Shown here: positions 4,426 through 42,382 of the stretch, in pieces | How the letters are laid out: each line of letters begins with the position of its first letter | Position numbering within the stretch: the first letter of the stretch is position 1 | Assembly (NCBI GenBank): GCA_022826485.1 | Contig: JAJDUU010000035.1 | Span: 62,001 to 126,000 of the forward strand | Direction of reading: 5' to 3' | Length of the DNA stretch: 64,000 bases | DNA from: Chloroflexota bacterium | Lineage (GTDB): Bacteria; Chloroflexota; UBA11872 | Notes under the pieces: model-generated | Told to the model about the DNA's origin: nothing | The model's database searches: none | Seen by the model: the letters and a program-made list of their open reading frames with translations, nothing else | Program-made: the position numbers and the translations under genes

Positions 4426-5541
4426 GTGACCAGCGACCGGCCCTCGGCACGGACCCCCTGCTGCGCCCCGCGGCCCACCGGACCGGACCCTCACCCTATC
4501 CCTCTCCCTCCAAGGGAGAGGGAACTGGACTCAGCCGAACCGCCACCCCTCCGTCATTCCGGCGATAGCCGGAATCCAGGTCCGGCCGACCCCGCCGCCC
4601 CGCTCGAGGACGACCCAAGAGCACCTCCGGCCCCTTCTCCCCTGGGGGGAGAAGGCAGGGATGAGGGGGATTCCGGCGCCGCGCCGATCTCCGACACAGT
4701 CCGCCTGCCCGGCGGGTCGTTCCTGATGGGCTCCAACGACCCCACCGGCTTTCCTGAGGACGGCGAAGGCCCCGTGCGGCGAGTGTCGGTCGGCGCCTTC
4801 CGCGTGGGCGTCCACGCCGTCACCAACGCGCAGTTCGCCGCCTTCGTCGACGCGACGCGCTACACCACCGACGCCGAGCGCTTTGGCTGGTCCTTCGTAT
4901 TCCACCTGCTCGTGTCGGAGGATGTCCGGCAGCGTCATCCTCAGCGCCCCGAGGCCACGCCCTGGTGGGTGCCCGTCACCGGCGCCACGTGGCGGCAGCC
5001 CGAAGGTCCGGGAAGCACGCTGGAGGGGCGCGGCGACCACCCGGTGGTCCACGTGTCGTGGCCCGACGCCGCGGCCTTTGCCGACTGGGCCGGCGCGCGC
5101 CTTCCCACCGAGGCCGAGTGGGAGTACGCGGCGCGCGGCGGCCTGGAGCAGCGGCGCTATCCCTGGGGCGATTCCTTGACACCGCGCCGGCAGCACCGCT
5201 GCAACATCTGGCAGGGCAGGTTTCCCGAGCGCAACACGCTGGACGACGGCTATCTCGCCACCGCGCCGGTGGATGCCTACGCGCCGAACCGCTTCGGCCT
5301 GTTCAACACGGCGGGCAACGTGTGGGAGTGGTGCGGCGACTGGTTCCACCCGACGTTCCACGTTCAAGGCCCGCGCGAGAATCCCGCAGGCCCGCCCGGC
5401 GGCACGGCGCGGGTGCTGCGCGGCGGCTCCTATCTGTGCCACCGCTCCTACTGCAACCGCTATCGCGTCGCCGCGCGCAGCGCCAACACCCCCGATAGCT
5501 CGGCGGGCAACGTCGGCTTCCGCTGCGTCTGGCCCGCGTGA
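4426..5541 (+). CDS. Formylglycine-generating enzyme (FGE/SUMF1) family; N-terminal ~95 codons repeat-derived
   Basis: LPGGSFLMGSND, RLPTEAEWEYAARGG, RVLRGGSYLCHRSYCNRYRVAARSANTPDSSAGNVGFRC with both catalytic-type cysteines; start site uncertain. Confidence 0.9.
   Translation: MTSDRPSARTPCCAPRPTGPDPHPIPLPPRERELDSAEPPPLRHSGDSRNPGPADPAAPLEDDPRAPPAPSPLGGEGRDEGDSGAAPISDTVRLPGGSFLMGSNDPTGFPEDGEGPVRRVSVGAFRVGVHAVTNAQFAAFVDATRYTTDAERFGWSFVFHLLVSEDVRQRHPQRPEATPWWVPVTGATWRQPEGPGSTLEGRGDHPVVHVSWPDAAAFADWAGARLPTEAEWEYAARGGLEQRRYPWGDSLTPRRQHRCNIWQGRFPERNTLDDGYLATAPVDAYAPNRFGLFNTAGNVWEWCGDWFHPTFHVQGPRENPAGPPGGTARVLRGGSYLCHRSYCNRYRVAARSANTPDSSAGNVGFRCVWPA
4480..4660. repeat. Palindromic repeat units inside the 5' part of the FGE reading frame
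   Basis: CCCTCACCCTATCCCTCTCCCTCCAAGGGAGAGGG and CCGTCATTCCGGCGATAGCCGGAATCCAGGTCCGGCCGAC. Confidence 0.8.
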
Positions 5542-31874: not shown

Positions 31875-32135
31875 GTCATCCCGGCGTCCCTCGTCACCCC
31901 GGCGAAGGCCGGGGTCCAGGTCCGGCGACACGCGTGAGACTCCGTCTGGATTCCGGTCCCGTGTCGAGTACGAGGCAGGCTCTTGCCCTCTCCCTGAGGG
32001 AGAGGGAACCGGACCCTCACCCTGCCCTCTCCCTGAGGGAGAGGGGGCCGGACCCGCTCCCCGGTTCCTGTTGGTGGGGTTTTGCAAGGGTCTCCCTTCG
32101 CGGGGACAGGCTCCGCCGGAATGACGGAGGGGGCT
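31875..32135. repeat. Composite palindromic repeat island
   Basis: GTCACCCCGGCGAAGGCCGGGGTCCAGGTCC; two CCCTCTCCCTGAGGGAGAGGG hairpins; nested CCCGTGTCGAGTACGAGG. Confidence 0.85.
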
Positions 32136-33860: not shown

Positions 33861-34175
33861 CCCGGCCCTCTGCCATCAAGGGACCTTCGGATAAGACTGT
33901 AGGGGCGGGTCTTAGACCCGCCCGACGCCAAGCATCCGGCGCGCCTCCAGGTTCGACCGGACTGGATTCCGGCCTCCGCCGGAATGACGGAAGGGGCGCG
34001 GGAGGTGATGGCGGGGTGGATTCCCGCCTGCGCGGGAATGACGGAGGGGGCGCGGGGGTTGGTGGGTGCGCGGGAGGTGGCGGTGGACTGGATTCCGGCC
34101 CCGTATCGAGTCCGGGGCAGGCTCTCCGCCGGAATGACGGAGGGGTTACGCAAAGGTCTCATCAAGGGAGAGGGG
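33850..34175. repeat. Composite palindromic repeat island overlapping tpiA start
   Basis: GGGCGGGTCTTAGACCCGCCC; ATTCCGGCCTCCGCCGGAAT; ATTCCCGCCTGCGCGGGAAT; nested CCCCGTATCGAGTCCGGGG. Confidence 0.85.
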
Positions 34176-35964: not shown

Positions 35965-36430
35965 GGTCGGATGTCTGAGATTCCTCGCTGCGCTCGGAAT
36001 GACAGGTTGGGGGCGCGCGGGTTTGTGTTGCGTGTGGGAGGTGATGGCGGGGTGGATTCCCGCCTCCGCGGGAATGACGGAGGGGGTGCGGGAGGTGGTG
36101 GGGGCGTGGGAGGTGGCGGCGGACTGGATTCCGGCCTCCGCCGGAATGACGAAGGGGGTGGGTGGGTTGGTGGTGGCGTGGGAGTGATGGAGGGGTGGAT
36201 TCCCGCCTTCGGAGACCTTTGTATATGGGGGCGATATCCCACGCCCCGGACCCTCACCCTGCCCTCTCCCTGGGGGAGAGGGAACCGGATCGCCCTCACC
36301 CCCGTATCGAGTACGGGGCAGGCTCTCGCCCTCTCCCTCTTCAAGGGAGAGGGAACCGGACCCGCTCCCCGGTCCCTGGTGGCGGGGCTTTTGCAAGGGT
36401 CTCCCTGCGCGGGAATGACGGAGGGGGTGG
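35965..36430. repeat. Composite palindromic repeat island
   Basis: AGATTCCTCGCTGCGCTCGGAATGACAG; ATTCCCGCCTCCGCGGGAAT; ATTCCGGCCTCCGCCGGAAT; CCCTCTCCCTGGGGGAGAGGG; nested CCCCGTATCGAGTACGGGG. Confidence 0.85.
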
Positions 36431-36543
36431 GAATGATGGGAGGTTTCGCATCGGTTTCAGGTTCCGACGTGCGCGTGGGTTGGGTGGCGTGCGACGATGG
36501 AATGGCACGCAGGAATCTTGAGCCGCATCACGGGGAGCGCAAC

Positions 36544-36801
36544 ATGTCGCATGGCGCCCGAGTCTCCATCGAATACTGCAGTCAATGAAACTATCTCCCT
36601 AGAGCCGTCCGTGCGACGGAGGAGATTCTGACCGAGTTTGCAAAGGACATCGCGGAGTGGACGCTGATTCCCTCCGGCGGCGGCGTGTTCGAGGTGAAGG
36701 TTAACGACGAGCTGGTGTTCTCCAAGCGGGAACTGAAGCGGCACGCCAAGCCCGGCGAGATCTATCCGCTGGTCAGCGAGGCGCTCGGCGGCTCAGGCTA
36801 A
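36544..36801 (+). CDS. SelW/SelT/Rdx-family selenoprotein with in-frame UGA (Sec) at 36586-36588
   Basis: MSHGARVSIEYCSQ[U]NYLPRAVRATEEILTEFAKDIAEWTLIPSGGGVFEVKVNDELVFSKRELKRHAKPGEIYPLVSEALGGSG*; CxxU motif; GGGGAG RBS-like upstream; SelB gene in window. Confidence 0.85.
36593..36626 (+). promoter_or_regulatory. Candidate bacterial SECIS hairpin
   Basis: ATCTCC-CTAGAG-CCGTC-CGTGC-GACGG-A-GGAGAT: 6-bp lower stem, internal loop, 5-bp upper stem, 5-nt loop with G at position 2, loop begins 21 nt after the UGA. Confidence 0.65.
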
Positions 36802-36804
36802 CCG

Positions 36805-36875
36805 GAACCCTCACACCCGTGTCGAGAACGGGGCAGGCTCCAGCCCTCTCCCATCGGGGGAGAGGGGACCGGAGC
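36805..36875. repeat. Repeat unit overlapping the 3' end of glcF
   Basis: CCCTCACACCCGTGTCGAGAACGGGGCAGGCTCCAGCCCTCTCCCATCGGGGGAGAGGGGACCGGA. Confidence 0.8.
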
Positions 36876-38181
36876 CTGCGGCGTACGCCGAGTCCAGGAA
36901 CTCGGCGAGGTGTAGCACTTCGAGATCGAGGCCCCTGCGCCGCGCGCCGGTGCGTAGGTGCAGGATGCAGCCGGGATTGCCGGAGACGATGGTGCGGGCG
37001 CCGGTGGCTTGGATCGCGTCGAGCTTCTCGTCGAGGATTTGGAGGGAAACCTCCGTATCGGTGGCGCTGTAGAGGCCCGCGGCGCCGCAGCAGACCGTGG
37101 GGTTGGCCGTCTCGACCAGCGTGACGCCGGGAATCGCACCGATGAGGTCGCGCGGCTGCTGCGAAATTCCCTGCGCGTGCACCAGGTGGCAGGCGTCCTG
37201 GTAGATCACCTCGCGCTCGACCTCGGCTGAACCACCGCCGGGCGCCTCGATCTCCGCGAGGAACTCGGAGAAGTCCCGCACCTTGGCGACGAACGCGCGC
37301 GCCCGCTCGCCGTAGGCGGGGTCGTCCGCCAGCAGGTGGCCGTACTCCTTCAGGGTTGAGCCGCAGCCGGCGGAGTTCACGACGATGGCGTCATAGGCGT
37401 CGGCCTCGAAGGCGTCGATGTTGCGCCGGGCCAGGTCGCGAGCCGTCTCGCGCGCGCCGCCGTGCACGTGCAGCGCGCCGCAGCACTGCTGGTGCTCGGG
37501 GATGTGGACCTCGCAGCCGGCGCGGGCCAGCACTCGTAGCGAGGCCCGGTGCGCATCGGCGAGCGACAGCGACATGATGCAGCCGGTCAGGAAGGCCACG
37601 CGCCGGCGACGCTCGCCCTCGGCGGGCACGAGGCGCAGGTCGGCGGCCTGGAGGAACTGCGCCGACATCGGCGGCGACATGGCGTCGAGCCGCGCCAGGG
37701 GCGGCGCCAGCGCGTGCAGCACCCGGCTGCGGCGCACCAGCCATTGCAAGCCGCTGCGCTGATACAGCCGCAGGCCTTGCCCCAGCAGCCGCAGCGCCCG
37801 CGGTCGGGTGAAGACGTGCCGCAACACCAGATCGGCGATGCGCCGCGCCCGCGGCAGCAGCCCGGCCTGCACCGTCTGCGCCCGCACGTCCTCGATGATC
37901 TCGCCGTACTTGACACCCGAGGGACAGGCGGTCTCGCAGGCGCGGCAGTCCAGGCAGCGGAAGGTGTGCTTAAGAAACGTCGGGCTGGTGAGCGACATGT
38001 GCCCGTCGGACACGGCCTTGGTGAGCTGAATGCGTCCCCGCGGCGAGTCCATCTCCAGACGCAGCACGCGGTAGGTGGGGCACTCGTTGAGGCACAGGCC
38101 GCAGTGCACGCAGGTGGCGATGGTGGCGGGATCGGGGGCGTCGCGCTCGCTGAAGCCGACGCGCGGTGCGGCGACGCTCAT
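36811..38181 (-). CDS. glcF: Glycolate oxidase iron-sulfur subunit (GlcF)-like
   Basis: CVHCGLCLNECPTYRVLRLEMDSPRGRIQL, CLDCRACETACPSGVKYGEI, QQCCGALHVHGG, TVCCGAAGLYS. Confidence 0.93.
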   Translation of the reverse strand: MSVAAPRVGFSERDAPDPATIATCVHCGLCLNECPTYRVLRLEMDSPRGRIQLTKAVSDGHMSLTSPTFLKHTFRCLDCRACETACPSGVKYGEIIEDVRAQTVQAGLLPRARRIADLVLRHVFTRPRALRLLGQGLRLYQRSGLQWLVRRSRVLHALAPPLARLDAMSPPMSAQFLQAADLRLVPAEGERRRRVAFLTGCIMSLSLADAHRASLRVLARAGCEVHIPEHQQCCGALHVHGGARETARDLARRNIDAFEADAYDAIVVNSAGCGSTLKEYGHLLADDPAYGERARAFVAKVRDFSEFLAEIEAPGGGSAEVEREVIYQDACHLVHAQGISQQPRDLIGAIPGVTLVETANPTVCCGAAGLYSATDTEVSLQILDEKLDAIQATGARTIVSGNPGCILHLRTGARRRGLDLEVLHLAEFLDSAYAAGSGPLSPDGRGLEPAPFSTRV

Positions 38182-39536
38182 GCGGCATCCGCCAGGAAGC
38201 GTCCCGGATTGAGCGTGCGGTTGGGATCGAACGCCGCCCGCAGCGAATCCGCGAGCGCATGCGCGGCGTTCGATGGATCGGCGCCCCAGACTTCGAGGCG
38301 GCGCTTGACCGCCGCCGGCGCCGCCTCGACGACGACCGGCGCATCGAACAATTCCGCGGCGCGCCGCAAATCGCCGACCGCACGGCAAACCGCGTCGCTG
38401 TCCCCGCCCGTCCAGCGCACCCGCCCGACGCCGCTCACGGCGTGAGCCTCCGCGCGCCACTCCAAGCCATGCTCCGCGGCGACGTCCGCCGCGGACCCGA
38501 GCAGCGATGGAATCTGCGACGAGAGGGCGCTCATGCGGCACACCGTATACGGCTCACCGGATGGGGGCGGTTCCGCCACGCTCACCGCATCGCGCCAGAA
38601 GTCGCGTTGGGCATTGCGCTCCAGGATGTTCGGCGCGGCCCCATTGGACGCGAGCGCCTCGTGGACCATCGCGAGCTGGGCGGCGACTCCAGCTTCGGTT
38701 CCGGCGAAGCGCGCCGCCAGCAACCAGGGCCGGTCCGGCACGTCGGCTGTCGCGACCAGACGCCGGTCGATGAGGTCAACCGCCGTGGGCGAGACCGGCA
38801 AACTCACGATCGACCCAACCGCGCCCCCGGCGTCGAGCGCCGACGCGAAGCCATAGACCGCCGTGCGCTCGTTGGTCGGCAGCGGCGCCACCTTGAGATT
38901 CACTCGGGTAATCAAGCCGAGCGTGCCCAGCGCCCCGATGTGACCCTTGTGCAGGTCATAGCCGGTCACGTTCTTGACCACCATGCCGCCGGATTTGGTG
39001 ATGACGCCGTCCGGCCCCGCCGCCTCCGCGCCGATTACCAGGTCGCGCAACGAGCCCGAGGCCACCCGGCGCGGACCCGAGGTATTGGTGGCCATCAGGC
39101 CGCCCAGCGTGGCGGATGCCGCGAACGGCGGGTCCAGCGGCAAGTGCTGGCCTTCCTCAGCCAGGCGCGCCTGCAGCGCCGCCAGGGTGATGCCGGCCTG
39201 GACGCCAAGCGTCAGGTCCGCGGGCGTGTAGGTGACGATGGCGTCGAGCGCGGTCATGTCGAGCACCACGTCCACGCGCTCGGGGATGTTGCCCAGGGCC
39301 ATCTGGCTGCCGCCGCCGCGCGGCGTCACCGCCGCGCCGATCTGGTCGCACCGCGCCACGACGGCCGCCGCTTCGTCCGGGTGCGCGGGACGGACGACGA
39401 CCGACGGCTCAACCCCGTCCACGGCCAACTCCTCCAGACCACCGGTGCGGATGCGGCTGGACGGCACATCGCGCGCCAACTCGGCGGCGATTTCCGTGGC
39501 CGTGAGGGCGGTCGGCGCCTCGGCTTCAAGTGCCAT
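38178..39536 (-). CDS. FAD-binding glycolate oxidase subunit (GlcD/GlcE)-like
   Basis: TPRGGGSQMALGNIPERVDVVLDM, GGLMATNTSGPRRVASGSLRDLVIGAEAAGPDGVITKSGGMVVKNVTGYDLHKG. Confidence 0.92.
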   Translation of the reverse strand: MALEAEAPTALTATEIAAELARDVPSSRIRTGGLEELAVDGVEPSVVVRPAHPDEAAAVVARCDQIGAAVTPRGGGSQMALGNIPERVDVVLDMTALDAIVTYTPADLTLGVQAGITLAALQARLAEEGQHLPLDPPFAASATLGGLMATNTSGPRRVASGSLRDLVIGAEAAGPDGVITKSGGMVVKNVTGYDLHKGHIGALGTLGLITRVNLKVAPLPTNERTAVYGFASALDAGGAVGSIVSLPVSPTAVDLIDRRLVATADVPDRPWLLAARFAGTEAGVAAQLAMVHEALASNGAAPNILERNAQRDFWRDAVSVAEPPPSGEPYTVCRMSALSSQIPSLLGSAADVAAEHGLEWRAEAHAVSGVGRVRWTGGDSDAVCRAVGDLRRAAELFDAPVVVEAAPAAVKRRLEVWGADPSNAAHALADSLRAAFDPNRTLNPGRFLADAA

Positions 39537-39587
39537 GATTGGCAGTATGGAGCGCGGCCAGGACCGGAACAACCGCCGGGGCGCGGC

Positions 39588-40496
39588 ATGATCGTGGCGC
39601 GCACGCGGGCCGAGCTGGCGGCGGCGCGCGCCCGGCTCGCTGATCCCGTTGGCGCCGTGCTCACCATGGGCGGCTTGCACGACGGCCACACCGCCCTGCT
39701 GCGGGCGGCGCGCCGCGAATGCGCCTCGGTCGTGGCCACGCGGTTCGTGAATCCCACCCAATTCGAGAACGAGCAGGACGCCGCGTCCTATCCGGGAGAC
39801 GAAGTCGCCGATCTGGACCGGTTCGCCGCCGAGGCCGTGGACGTGGCGTTCGTTCCGCCGGCCCACGAGGTCTATGCGCCGGGGGTCGCCGCCGAGGTTG
39901 GCGCGGGACGCCTCGGCACCGTGCTCGAAGGCGCCAGCCGTCCGGGGCACTTCGACGGCGTCGCCACGGTGGTCGCGCTGCTGCTCGATCTCACACGCCC
40001 CGCGCGCTCCTACTTCGGGCAGAAGGATTGGCAGCAGACGCGCGTGGTGCGGCAGGTCGTGGAGGACCTGGCGCTCGGCGTGACGGTGCGCGTGGTCCGC
40101 ACCGTGCGCGACGACACGGGCCTGGCGCTGGGCACTCGCAACGAGCGGCTGTCGGACGAAGGGCGCCGGGCGGCGCGTGTGATTCATCGCGGGCTGCGGG
40201 CTGCGGCCGATGCCTGGCAGCACGGTGAGCGCCAGGCTGATCGACTGGAGCGGGCCATGCGGCGGGAGTTGGAAAGCGAACCCGGCGTCAGCGTCGACTA
40301 CGCCGTGGCGCGGGAGCCGCTCGCGCTCGACGCCCTCGACCCGGAGGCGTCCGCCGTCGCGCTGCTCGTGGCCGCCTGGGTGGAAGGGGTGCGCCTGATC
40401 GACAACCTCGTAATCGGCGACGGGCTCATCGACATCGACCCCGCACCGCTGCTGGCCGCGCCTGCACCGAGTGGCGGTCCGTCGGCCTCGGCGTGA
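39588..40496 (+). CDS. panC: Pantothenate synthetase
   Basis: GAVLTMGGLHDGHTALLRAARREC, TRFVNPTQFENEQD, GASRPGHFDGVATVVALLLDLTRPARSYFGQKDWQQTRVVRQV. Confidence 0.94.
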   Translation: MIVARTRAELAAARARLADPVGAVLTMGGLHDGHTALLRAARRECASVVATRFVNPTQFENEQDAASYPGDEVADLDRFAAEAVDVAFVPPAHEVYAPGVAAEVGAGRLGTVLEGASRPGHFDGVATVVALLLDLTRPARSYFGQKDWQQTRVVRQVVEDLALGVTVRVVRTVRDDTGLALGTRNERLSDEGRRAARVIHRGLRAAADAWQHGERQADRLERAMRRELESEPGVSVDYAVAREPLALDALDPEASAVALLVAAWVEGVRLIDNLVIGDGLIDIDPAPLLAAPAPSGGPSASA

Positions 40497-42382
40497 CCGC
40501 CAAGTCCGAGCCGCCGCAGGCCGCGACCGTTGGCACGGCGGGACACGTCGATCACGGCAAATCGACCCTGGTCCACGCGCTGACCGGCATCGATCCGGAT
40601 CGCCTGGCCGAAGAGAAGGCGCGGGGCATGACCATCGACCTGGGGTTCGCCTGGCTCACGCTGCCCAGCGGGCGCTCGGTGAGCCTGGTGGACGTTCCGG
40701 GACACGAGCGATTCATTCACAACATGCTGGCCGGCGTGGGCGGCATCGACGCCTGTCTCTTCGTCGTGGCCGCCGACGAAGGCGTGATGCCGCAGACGCG
40801 CGAGCACCTCGACATCGTGACGCTGCTCGGCATCGACCGGGGCGTGGTCGCGCTGGCCAAGACGGACCTGGTGGACGAGGAGTGGCTCGATCTGGTCGAG
40901 CACGAGGTGCGGGAGGCGCTGGCGGACAGCTCGCTGGCCCGCGCGCCCATCGTTCCGGTCTCCGCGCGCGAGGGCGCCGGCCTGGAGATGCTCCTGGACA
41001 CGCTGGAGGAAGTCTTGTCGCAGCCGCAGACGCGGCCGCAGACCGGCGGGCCGCGGCTTCCCGTCGACCGCGCCTTCACCCAACCCGGCTTCGGCACCGT
41101 GGTGACCGGCACGCTGGCCGGCGAGCCGCTCGACGTGGGCGATATGGTCCACCTGTATCCGGGTGGTGCGCGGGCTCGCGTGCGGGGGTTGCAGACCCAT
41201 CGCGCGTCGGAGGACCGCGCCTGGCCGGGACGGCGCGTGGCGGTGAACCTGGGCGGCGTCGCGCCGTCCGACGTGCCGCGCGGCACGGTGGTGGCGGCGC
41301 CCGGCGCCGTCACCGAGACGCGGCGCGTGGACGCCACGCTGCAACTGCTGCCGTCGGCGCCGCGGGCGTTGAAGCCGGGGGAGCGGGTGTCGTGGCACTC
41401 GGGGACCGCCGAAGTGGTCGCGGCCCTGCGCTACCTGGAGGCCGACCCGATCCCGCCAGGCGCCGCCGGCTGGGTCCAGTGGCGGCTTGGCGAGTCCGTC
41501 GCCGTCCGCAAGGGCGATCCCTATGTGATCCGGCGGCTGTCGCCGCCCATGACCATTGGCGGCGGCGAGATCGTGCGCGCGCAGGCCCGCCATGTGCCGC
41601 GCGGCGACGCCGGCGCGCTCCAGGCCCTCGAACGCGCCCGCCGCGCCGCGCCGGCCGAGCTGGTGACGGCTGCGGTGGAGGCCTCGGGCGCGCTCACGCC
41701 GGCCGAGATCGCGCGGCGCACCGAGGTGAGCCTGGACGAGGTGACGGCAATCGTGGACCAGGTGGAGCGGCAGGGCGGGCTGTGTGTGGTCGGCGGCTAC
41801 GTGGCGACGGCCGCCGCCGTCGACGCTCTGAGCCGGCGCATTGGCGCCCTGCTAGCGGCGGGCGCCGCCGGCGGTGTGGCGCGGGCCGCGCTGCCCCGGC
41901 AACTCGGGGCGCCGGCGGCTCTCGTCGCGGCGCTGCTGGAGAGGCTGGCGGCCGAGGGGGACGTTGTCCTCGAGGGCGGGCGGATCCTGCCACCGGGACG
42001 GGCTCCGGCGCCGCATGGTCCGGAGGCCGACCGCCTGCTGGCCGCGCTCGACCAGGGCGGCTTTGCGCCGCCGGACTTGCCCACGCTGGCTCGCGCTCAC
42101 GGCGCGCCGCCGGGTCTCCTGGACGCCCTGACCGCCGCGGGAGACCTGGTGCGCATCACGCCGACGTTTGGCCTCAGCCGGGCGGGCTATGCGCGCTGGC
42201 GGCGGGCCGTTGGCGAGGCTTTCGCCGCCAACGAGCAGCTGACGGTGCGACAGCTCCGCGACCGGCTGGGCACGAGCCGCAAATACGTCCTGGCGTTCCT
42301 GGAGCACCTGGACGCCCGCGCCGTCACGCGGCGGGTGGGCGAAGTGCGCGTGCTGCTGGATCGGAGTTGGCTGCCGGAGTAG
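40493..42382 (+). CDS. selB: Selenocysteine-specific translation elongation factor SelB
   Basis: VGTAGHVDHGKSTLVHALTGIDPDRLAEEKARGMTIDLGFAWL, VDVPGHERFIHNMLAGVGGIDACLFVVAADEGVMPQTREHL; long C-terminal winged-helix region. Confidence 0.93.
   Translation: MTAKSEPPQAATVGTAGHVDHGKSTLVHALTGIDPDRLAEEKARGMTIDLGFAWLTLPSGRSVSLVDVPGHERFIHNMLAGVGGIDACLFVVAADEGVMPQTREHLDIVTLLGIDRGVVALAKTDLVDEEWLDLVEHEVREALADSSLARAPIVPVSAREGAGLEMLLDTLEEVLSQPQTRPQTGGPRLPVDRAFTQPGFGTVVTGTLAGEPLDVGDMVHLYPGGARARVRGLQTHRASEDRAWPGRRVAVNLGGVAPSDVPRGTVVAAPGAVTETRRVDATLQLLPSAPRALKPGERVSWHSGTAEVVAALRYLEADPIPPGAAGWVQWRLGESVAVRKGDPYVIRRLSPPMTIGGGEIVRAQARHVPRGDAGALQALERARRAAPAELVTAAVEASGALTPAEIARRTEVSLDEVTAIVDQVERQGGLCVVGGYVATAAAVDALSRRIGALLAAGAAGGVARAALPRQLGAPAALVAALLERLAAEGDVVLEGGRILPPGRAPAPHGPEADRLLAALDQGGFAPPDLPTLARAHGAPPGLLDALTAAGDLVRITPTFGLSRAGYARWRRAVGEAFAANEQLTVRQLRDRLGTSRKYVLAFLEHLDARAVTRRVGEVRVLLDRSWLPE

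What the first reader, a model, noticed from the sequence alone, without database searches (positions are those of the whole stretch)
36544..36801. Missed selenoprotein: SelW/Rdx-family gene with in-frame UGA in a CxxU motif
Read through the TGA at 36586-36588, the frame gives MSHGARVSIEYCSQ-U-NYLPRAVRATEEILTEFAKDIAEWTLIPSGGGVFEVKVNDELVFSKRELKRHAKPGEIYPLVSEALGGSG*. This has the thioredoxin-like Rdx pattern IEYCxx(C/U)xYxPRA...LIPSGGGxFEVxVxxELVFSK, with Sec in the position usually held by the second Cys. The ORF track breaks the gene at the TGA and offers an antisense ORF (36457-36744) instead. A selB gene lies at 40493-42382, so decoding machinery is plausible. Chloroflexota SelW-like selenoproteins with a C-S-Q-U motif are, as far as I know, sparsely described.
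Basis: partly seen in the sequence, partly recalled or inferred. Interest (0 to 1): 0.9.

Follow-up and report, generated by a model that had tools for sequence, protein, structure and literature searches.

The report
Selenocysteine SelW-like redox protein gene
A small gene that looks broken by a stop codon is intact: the stop is almost certainly read as the rare amino acid selenocysteine, giving a thioredoxin-like protein of a well-known bacterial selenoprotein family that turns out to be common across the phylum Chloroflexota.

Summary
The finding is right. Read through TGA 36586-36588, window 36544-36801 (+) encodes an 85-aa Rdx/SelW-like protein whose CxxC motif has Sec in place of the second Cys (C-S-Q-U). 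Four lines of evidence support this. (1) Family and fold: Pfam Rdx E 2.8e-21; an AlphaFold model matches solved SelW-related proteins at TM 0.89. (2) Homologues align across the codon and keep TGA there: 122 of 150 listed matches in 400 Chloroflexota genomes contain an in-frame TGA; all of those fetched have it at the CxxU site, while other subfamilies have Cys. (3) A bacterial SECIS hairpin at 36605-36619 fits the published consensus, covaries across relatives, and is absent from Cys homologues. (4) The same genome holds selA, selB (in the window), a UCA tRNA-Sec and selD, itself a UGA selenoprotein.

It is not a new kind of thing: SelW-like CxxU proteins are a listed bacterial selenoprotein family, abundant in marine metagenomes, and read-through of Campylobacter SelW has been shown experimentally. 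The new part is modest: the gene itself, and evidence that Sec is the usual form in Chloroflexota, with a SECIS in two alternative registers. Sec insertion and the redox partner remain unproven here.

The parts
36532..36537 (+). Shine-Dalgarno-like GGGGAG, 6 nt before the ATG
   Evidence: sequence read directly; inference, not tested
36544..36801 (+). selW-like (Rdx) selenoprotein gene, 85 aa plus TAA stop
36577..36588 (+). CxxU redox motif, Cys12-Ser-Gln-Sec15
36586..36588 (+). in-frame UGA read as selenocysteine
   Evidence: same codon at the same column in 104 fetched loci (plus L158, cut at a contig edge) and Cys in 27
36605..36619 (+). bacterial SECIS hairpin CCGUC-CGUGC-GACGG; loop begins 21 nt after the UGA, with GU at loop positions 2-3
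40493..42382 (+). selB, Sec-specific elongation factor (same genome; 3.7 kb downstream)
   Evidence: TIGR00475 312.4 bits over cut-off 242.25; SelB winged-helix Pfam

Best explanation
The gene encodes a SelW-like (Rdx) selenoprotein. SelB carrying Sec-tRNA(UCA) binds the hairpin just after the UGA, and the ribosome inserts selenocysteine at residue 15. The product is a small thioredoxin-fold protein with a Cys-Ser-Gln-Sec active site at the end of the first strand, which most likely works as a thiol/selenol oxidoreductase by forming and breaking a Cys-Sec selenenyl-sulfide bond. Shown here: reading frame, family, fold prediction, conserved UGA, covarying hairpin, complete Sec machinery. Inferred: actual Sec insertion, catalytic role. 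Unknown: the redox partner and substrate. When selenium is short, the UGA would end translation after 14 residues.
For: Family: Rdx 2.8e-21, NF041051 94.5 bits (cut-off 88), TIGR02174 56.5 bits (cut-off 34.2). Fold: AlphaFold pLDDT 89.5, matches 2fa8, 3dex and other bacterial SelW-related structures at TMq 0.81-0.90. Conservation: TGA at the CxxU column in every genus and family relative fetched, and an in-frame TGA in 122 of 150 listed phylum matches. SECIS: hairpin in all 73 distinct Sec genes; synonymous-codon null z about 17 for Sec genes, no excess for 8 Cys genes; 60 of 62 unselected distinct sequences fully pair in one of two registers; 29 double-sided compensatory cells against 7.5 shuffled (on sequences selected for pairing). 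Machinery: selA 492.7 bits, tRNA-Sec 71.3 bits with anticodon UCA, selD 378.9 bits with SPGAGUACK, selB in the window. Co-occurrence: 121 of 124 genomes with the TGA form have selB over cut-off against 185 of 276 others (counted by hand; test).
Against: No direct evidence of Sec insertion. For the window gene alone, the hairpin is not exceptional against its own synonymous-codon null (fraction 0.23); the evidence is comparative. Phylum genomes are related, so co-occurrence and covariation counts are not independent events. No promoter-like or terminator-like site was found by consensus scan.
Confidence: 0.96

Rival explanations
1. A Cys-type Rdx gene with a nonsense mutation, pseudogene decay or an assembly error at the TGA.
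For: A single in-frame stop in one genome would look like this; the family does have Cys members.
Against: The same TGA is present in independent assemblies of the same genus, family and phylum. Selection on codon positions continues after the TGA (7 of 7 differences at third positions in L018). A hairpin specific to the Sec forms is conserved.
Confidence: 0.01
2. UGA is reassigned in this organism (for example to Trp or Gly) rather than read as Sec.
For: UGA is reassigned in some bacterial lineages (general knowledge).
Against: TGA is the normal stop of this very gene in the same-genus relatives L018-L020. The site aligns with Cys in homologues, not Trp or Gly. tRNA-Sec, selA and selD are present.
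Confidence: 0.01
3. Translation starts downstream of the TGA, or the true gene is the antisense ORF 36457-36744.
For: Gene callers that treat TGA as stop would propose this; the antisense ORF is open in the window.
Against: The conserved segment starts upstream of the TGA, with VSIEYC kept, and the Rdx match starts at residue 6. The antisense frame has stops in L021, L022, L032 and L033. Substitutions fall mostly at third positions of the selW frame in the genus.
Confidence: 0.01
4. The protein is made with Sec but acts as a redox sensor, chaperone or protein-interaction adaptor rather than as an oxidoreductase.
For: The cellular function of bacterial SelW-like proteins is not settled. The gene has no conserved operon partner beyond genus level, which leaves the substrate open.
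Against: Strict conservation of both redox residues of CxxU and the thioredoxin-like fold point to redox chemistry.
Confidence: 0.2

Closest known systems
Bacterial SelW-like (SELENOW-like) selenoproteins, PF10262, CxxU (PMC1794560; PMC2398784; PMC9312934)
   Same: Family, length, CxxU motif, Sec at the second position, downstream bSECIS, Sec-rich family with few Cys members close by
   Different: Only the taxon and motif variant (C-S-Q-U). The 2006 survey listed just 3 selenoproteins in all of Chloroflexi (PMC1794560).
Campylobacter jejuni SelW (about 80 aa; Ribo-seq and proteomics, PMC11955535); NCBIfam NF041051 SelTWH_Campy
   Same: The window protein passes the NF041051 cut-off; UGA read by tRNA-Sec; an unannotated small gene
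   Different: Different phylum; read-through there is shown experimentally, here it is inferred
Rdx / SelW-related proteins of known structure (2fa8, 3dex, 2obk, 2oka, 2p0g; mouse SelW 2npb)
   Same: Fold, TMq about 0.8-0.9 to the bacterial ones and 0.68 to mouse SelW
   Different: Sequence identity 22-44%
Chloroflexota Cys-type Rdx subfamilies (CxECGYEPQ..., CRxCRWL..., CADCGYWPR...)
   Same: Same domain and motif position
   Different: Cys instead of Sec, no SECIS hairpin excess in the 8 checked, mostly distinct subfamilies on the tree

Membership tests
Rdx family (PF10262) | Score above the family gathering threshold over the domain | tested here: met
   76 bits against 22.6, profile 1-72 of 74
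Rdx family (PF10262) | Thioredoxin-like fold of SelW-related proteins | tested here: met
   AlphaFold model pLDDT 89.5; best PDB match 2fa8_B TMq 0.89, E 2.5e-10
SelW-like bacterial selenoprotein | CxxU motif with in-frame UGA at the second redox position, aligned with Cys in non-Sec homologues | tested here: met
SelW-like bacterial selenoprotein | bSECIS: stem, small apical loop with G in its first two positions, loop 16-37 nt after the UGA | tested here: met
   5-bp stem, 5-nt loop CGUGC, 21 nt after the UGA; covariation across relatives (model as described in PMC13188914)
SelW-like bacterial selenoprotein | Sec-decoding trait in the same genome: selA, selB, selC, selD | tested here: met
SelW-like bacterial selenoprotein | Sec is physically inserted at the UGA | not testable with these tools
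   needs 75Se labelling, mass spectrometry or a reporter
Thiol/selenol oxidoreductase | Redox activity dependent on Cys12/Sec15 | not testable with these tools
   inferred from fold and motif only

The most novel reading that the evidence does not exclude
In Chloroflexota the Sec form of SelW is the default and possibly ancestral form. It is found in about a third of sampled genomes, with Cys forms arising a few times. Its SECIS requirement has constrained the protein itself: the residue pair after CxxU covaries (Val with Thr, or Ala with Ala) because the codons must base-pair, and two alternative hairpin registers have been used.
Probability: 0.45. Interest if true: 0.4.

Novelty: new member of a known kind. 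Interest (0 to 1): 0.3.

Why it matters
It corrects a gene that stop-codon-based callers break, and indicates that this group of Chloroflexota makes selenoproteins. At phylum scale, about 120 sampled genomes carry the same easily overlooked gene, which gives a large natural alignment for studying how the bacterial SECIS and the protein it overlaps constrain each other. The biology of the family itself is already known in outline.

Tried and rejected
A covariance model of the SelW SECIS found only this gene in the genome; the next hits were at E above 2, so it is specific to SelW genes and does not reveal other selenoproteins. A scan of the window for other TGA codons in Cys/Sec motifs with bSECIS-like hairpins gave 16 candidates; all but this one looked like low-complexity or antisense frames on inspection, and they were not searched further. 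'TAG inside' flags in some search rows (G213, G165, G315 and others) are ordinary stops at or just before the end of the gene, apart from L061, where a TAG lies just before the conserved part; none is a second recoding. Phage records have no similar DNA. Conserved gene neighbourhood as a clue to function: the order PHP-ICMT-tpiA-rfbA-ftsY-selW-glcF-glcE-panC-selB is kept within the genus only and not in other members of the family, so it gives no partner.

Full report
Observation. The window has ATG at 36544, an in-frame TGA at 36586-36588 and TAA at 36799-36801. Read through, the product is 85 aa: MSHGARVSIEYCSQ-U-NYLPRAV...SEALGGSG. A purine-rich GGGGAG lies 6 nt before the ATG. The ATG and the sequence after it are conserved in the genus (MSHGAR) and family (MGRGAR).

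Family. Pfam Rdx matches at 2.8e-21 over residues 6-77, so the match spans the TGA. NCBIfam NF041051 (SelT/SelW/SelH family (seleno)protein) and TIGR02174 (CXXU_selWTH) both pass their cut-offs. The profile of relatives finds eight solved sequences of SelW-related proteins. An AlphaFold model from 11 sequences (pLDDT 89.5) matches Agrobacterium 2fa8 at TMq 0.89 and Streptomyces 3dex at 0.88.

Homologues across the UGA. A scan of species genomes returned 16 loci, 15 of them Chloroflexota and one Salsuginibacillus (Bacillota). All carry TGA at this codon. In 400 Chloroflexota genomes, 186 have a match, and 122 of the 150 listed places contain an in-frame TGA (counted by hand). Of 131 sequences with the whole motif (the window plus fetched loci, some genomes counted twice), 104 have TGA at the CxxU column and 27 have a Cys codon; a further one cut at a contig edge (L158) also has TGA. 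The Cys forms belong mostly to other subfamilies. On a tree built with the trait column blanked, the labels need 6 changes, at least 2 of them forced by well-supported branches, against 24 when shuffled. The tree has few columns and is only rough.

Mode of selection. The same-genus gene L018 differs at 7 bases, all third positions. In L019, L020, L021 and L026 the UGA is unchanged, and the next 39 nt carry 0-3 differences against 14-48 in the last 165 nt. The antisense ORF 36457-36744 contains stops in several relatives.

SECIS. The hairpin CCGUC-CGUGC-GACGG occupies 36605-36619. The loop starts 21 nt after the UGA and has G at its second position followed by U. This meets the bacterial SECIS model (G in one of the first two loop positions, often followed by G or U; loop 16-37 nt from the UGA; PMC13188914). 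All 73 distinct Sec genes have such a hairpin. 52 of the 73 form all five pairs in the window's register, and most of the others use a register shifted by about four bases. Among 62 clearly different sequences, not selected for pairing, 60 fully pair in one register or the other. Against synonymous-codon resampling that keeps the protein, Sec genes have a mean score of 16.3 against 8.7 (z about 17), while 8 Cys genes have 5.4 against 7.7. For the window gene alone the score is not unusual (fraction 0.23), so the case is comparative. In 43 sequences selected for the main register, 4 of 5 pairs show double-sided changes, with 29 such cells against 7.5 in shuffles; selection makes the 100% paired figure there uninformative. 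The commonest covariation, U-A with C-G at the fourth pair, goes with Val...Thr or Ala...Ala in the protein.

Machinery. The same genome (96% complete) has selA (492.7 bits), selD (378.9 bits, with its own in-frame TGA in SPGAGUACK), tRNA-Sec with anticodon UCA at 71.3 bits, and selB in this window. In the phylum, 121 of 124 genomes with the TGA form have selB over cut-off, against 185 of 276 others (counted by hand; Fisher test). The three exceptions are 77-89% complete. Genomes are related, so the p-value overstates the evidence.

Context. In the same genus the gene lies in a kept block PHP-ICMT-tpiA-rfbA-ftsY-selW-glcF-glcE-panC-selB. In the other family members examined the neighbours differ, so the proximity of selW and selB is not a conserved link. 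The gene appears to stand alone; no promoter-like or terminator-like consensus was found.

Known and new. SelW-like CxxU proteins were described in bacteria by 2006 (PMC1794560) and are, with SelD, the most widespread selenoproteins in ocean samples, 427 sequences in the Global Ocean Sampling set (PMC2398784). They are a listed prokaryotic family (PMC9312934, PMC13188914). In Campylobacter jejuni, ribosome profiling and proteomics show translation past the Sec codon of SelW (PMC11955535). Paper searches found no work on SelW in Chloroflexota beyond a count of three selenoproteins in that phylum in 2006. The finding is therefore a new member of a known kind. The phylum-wide picture is an extension worth a short note, not a surprise.

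What remains inferred: physical Sec insertion, redox activity, partner and substrate.

Noticed in passing
22 places in the window, e.g. 36054-36079, 36126-36151, 34018-34043: A palindromic repeat, GGATTCCSGCCTNCGCSGGAATGACG, occurs 22 times in 64 kb with none expected by chance; intergenic at the places looked at, like a REP-type element.
   Followed up: partly
4500-4522, 32025-32047, 36331-36353, 36844-36866 and others: A second palindromic repeat family, CCCTCTCCCTNNNNGGGAGAGGG, with 11 matches on both strands (6 distinct places) against 0.02 expected. One copy lies shortly after the selW stop, at 36844-36866.
   Followed up: no
L013:1501-2427 (own genome contig C17): selD is itself a UGA selenoprotein (SPGAGUACK).
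   Followed up: partly
L070, L073-L077, L085, L092, L094, L097, L103, L120-L122, L126: A subset of Chloroflexota selW genes uses a different SECIS register (CCGGGC-CGUGA-GCCUGG type, loop 17-18 nt after the UGA) instead of the main one.
   Followed up: partly
L033: Salsuginibacillus halophilus (Bacillota) has a related Sec-type SelW with the same SECIS position, CCGUGA-GUU-UCACGG, where compensatory changes keep the stem.
   Followed up: no
window 36811-38406 (-) and 38178-39551 (-): GlcF-like iron-sulfur and GlcE-like FAD subunits of a glycolate-oxidase-type complex, in adjacent overlapping frames; both score below the equivalog cut-offs.
   Followed up: no
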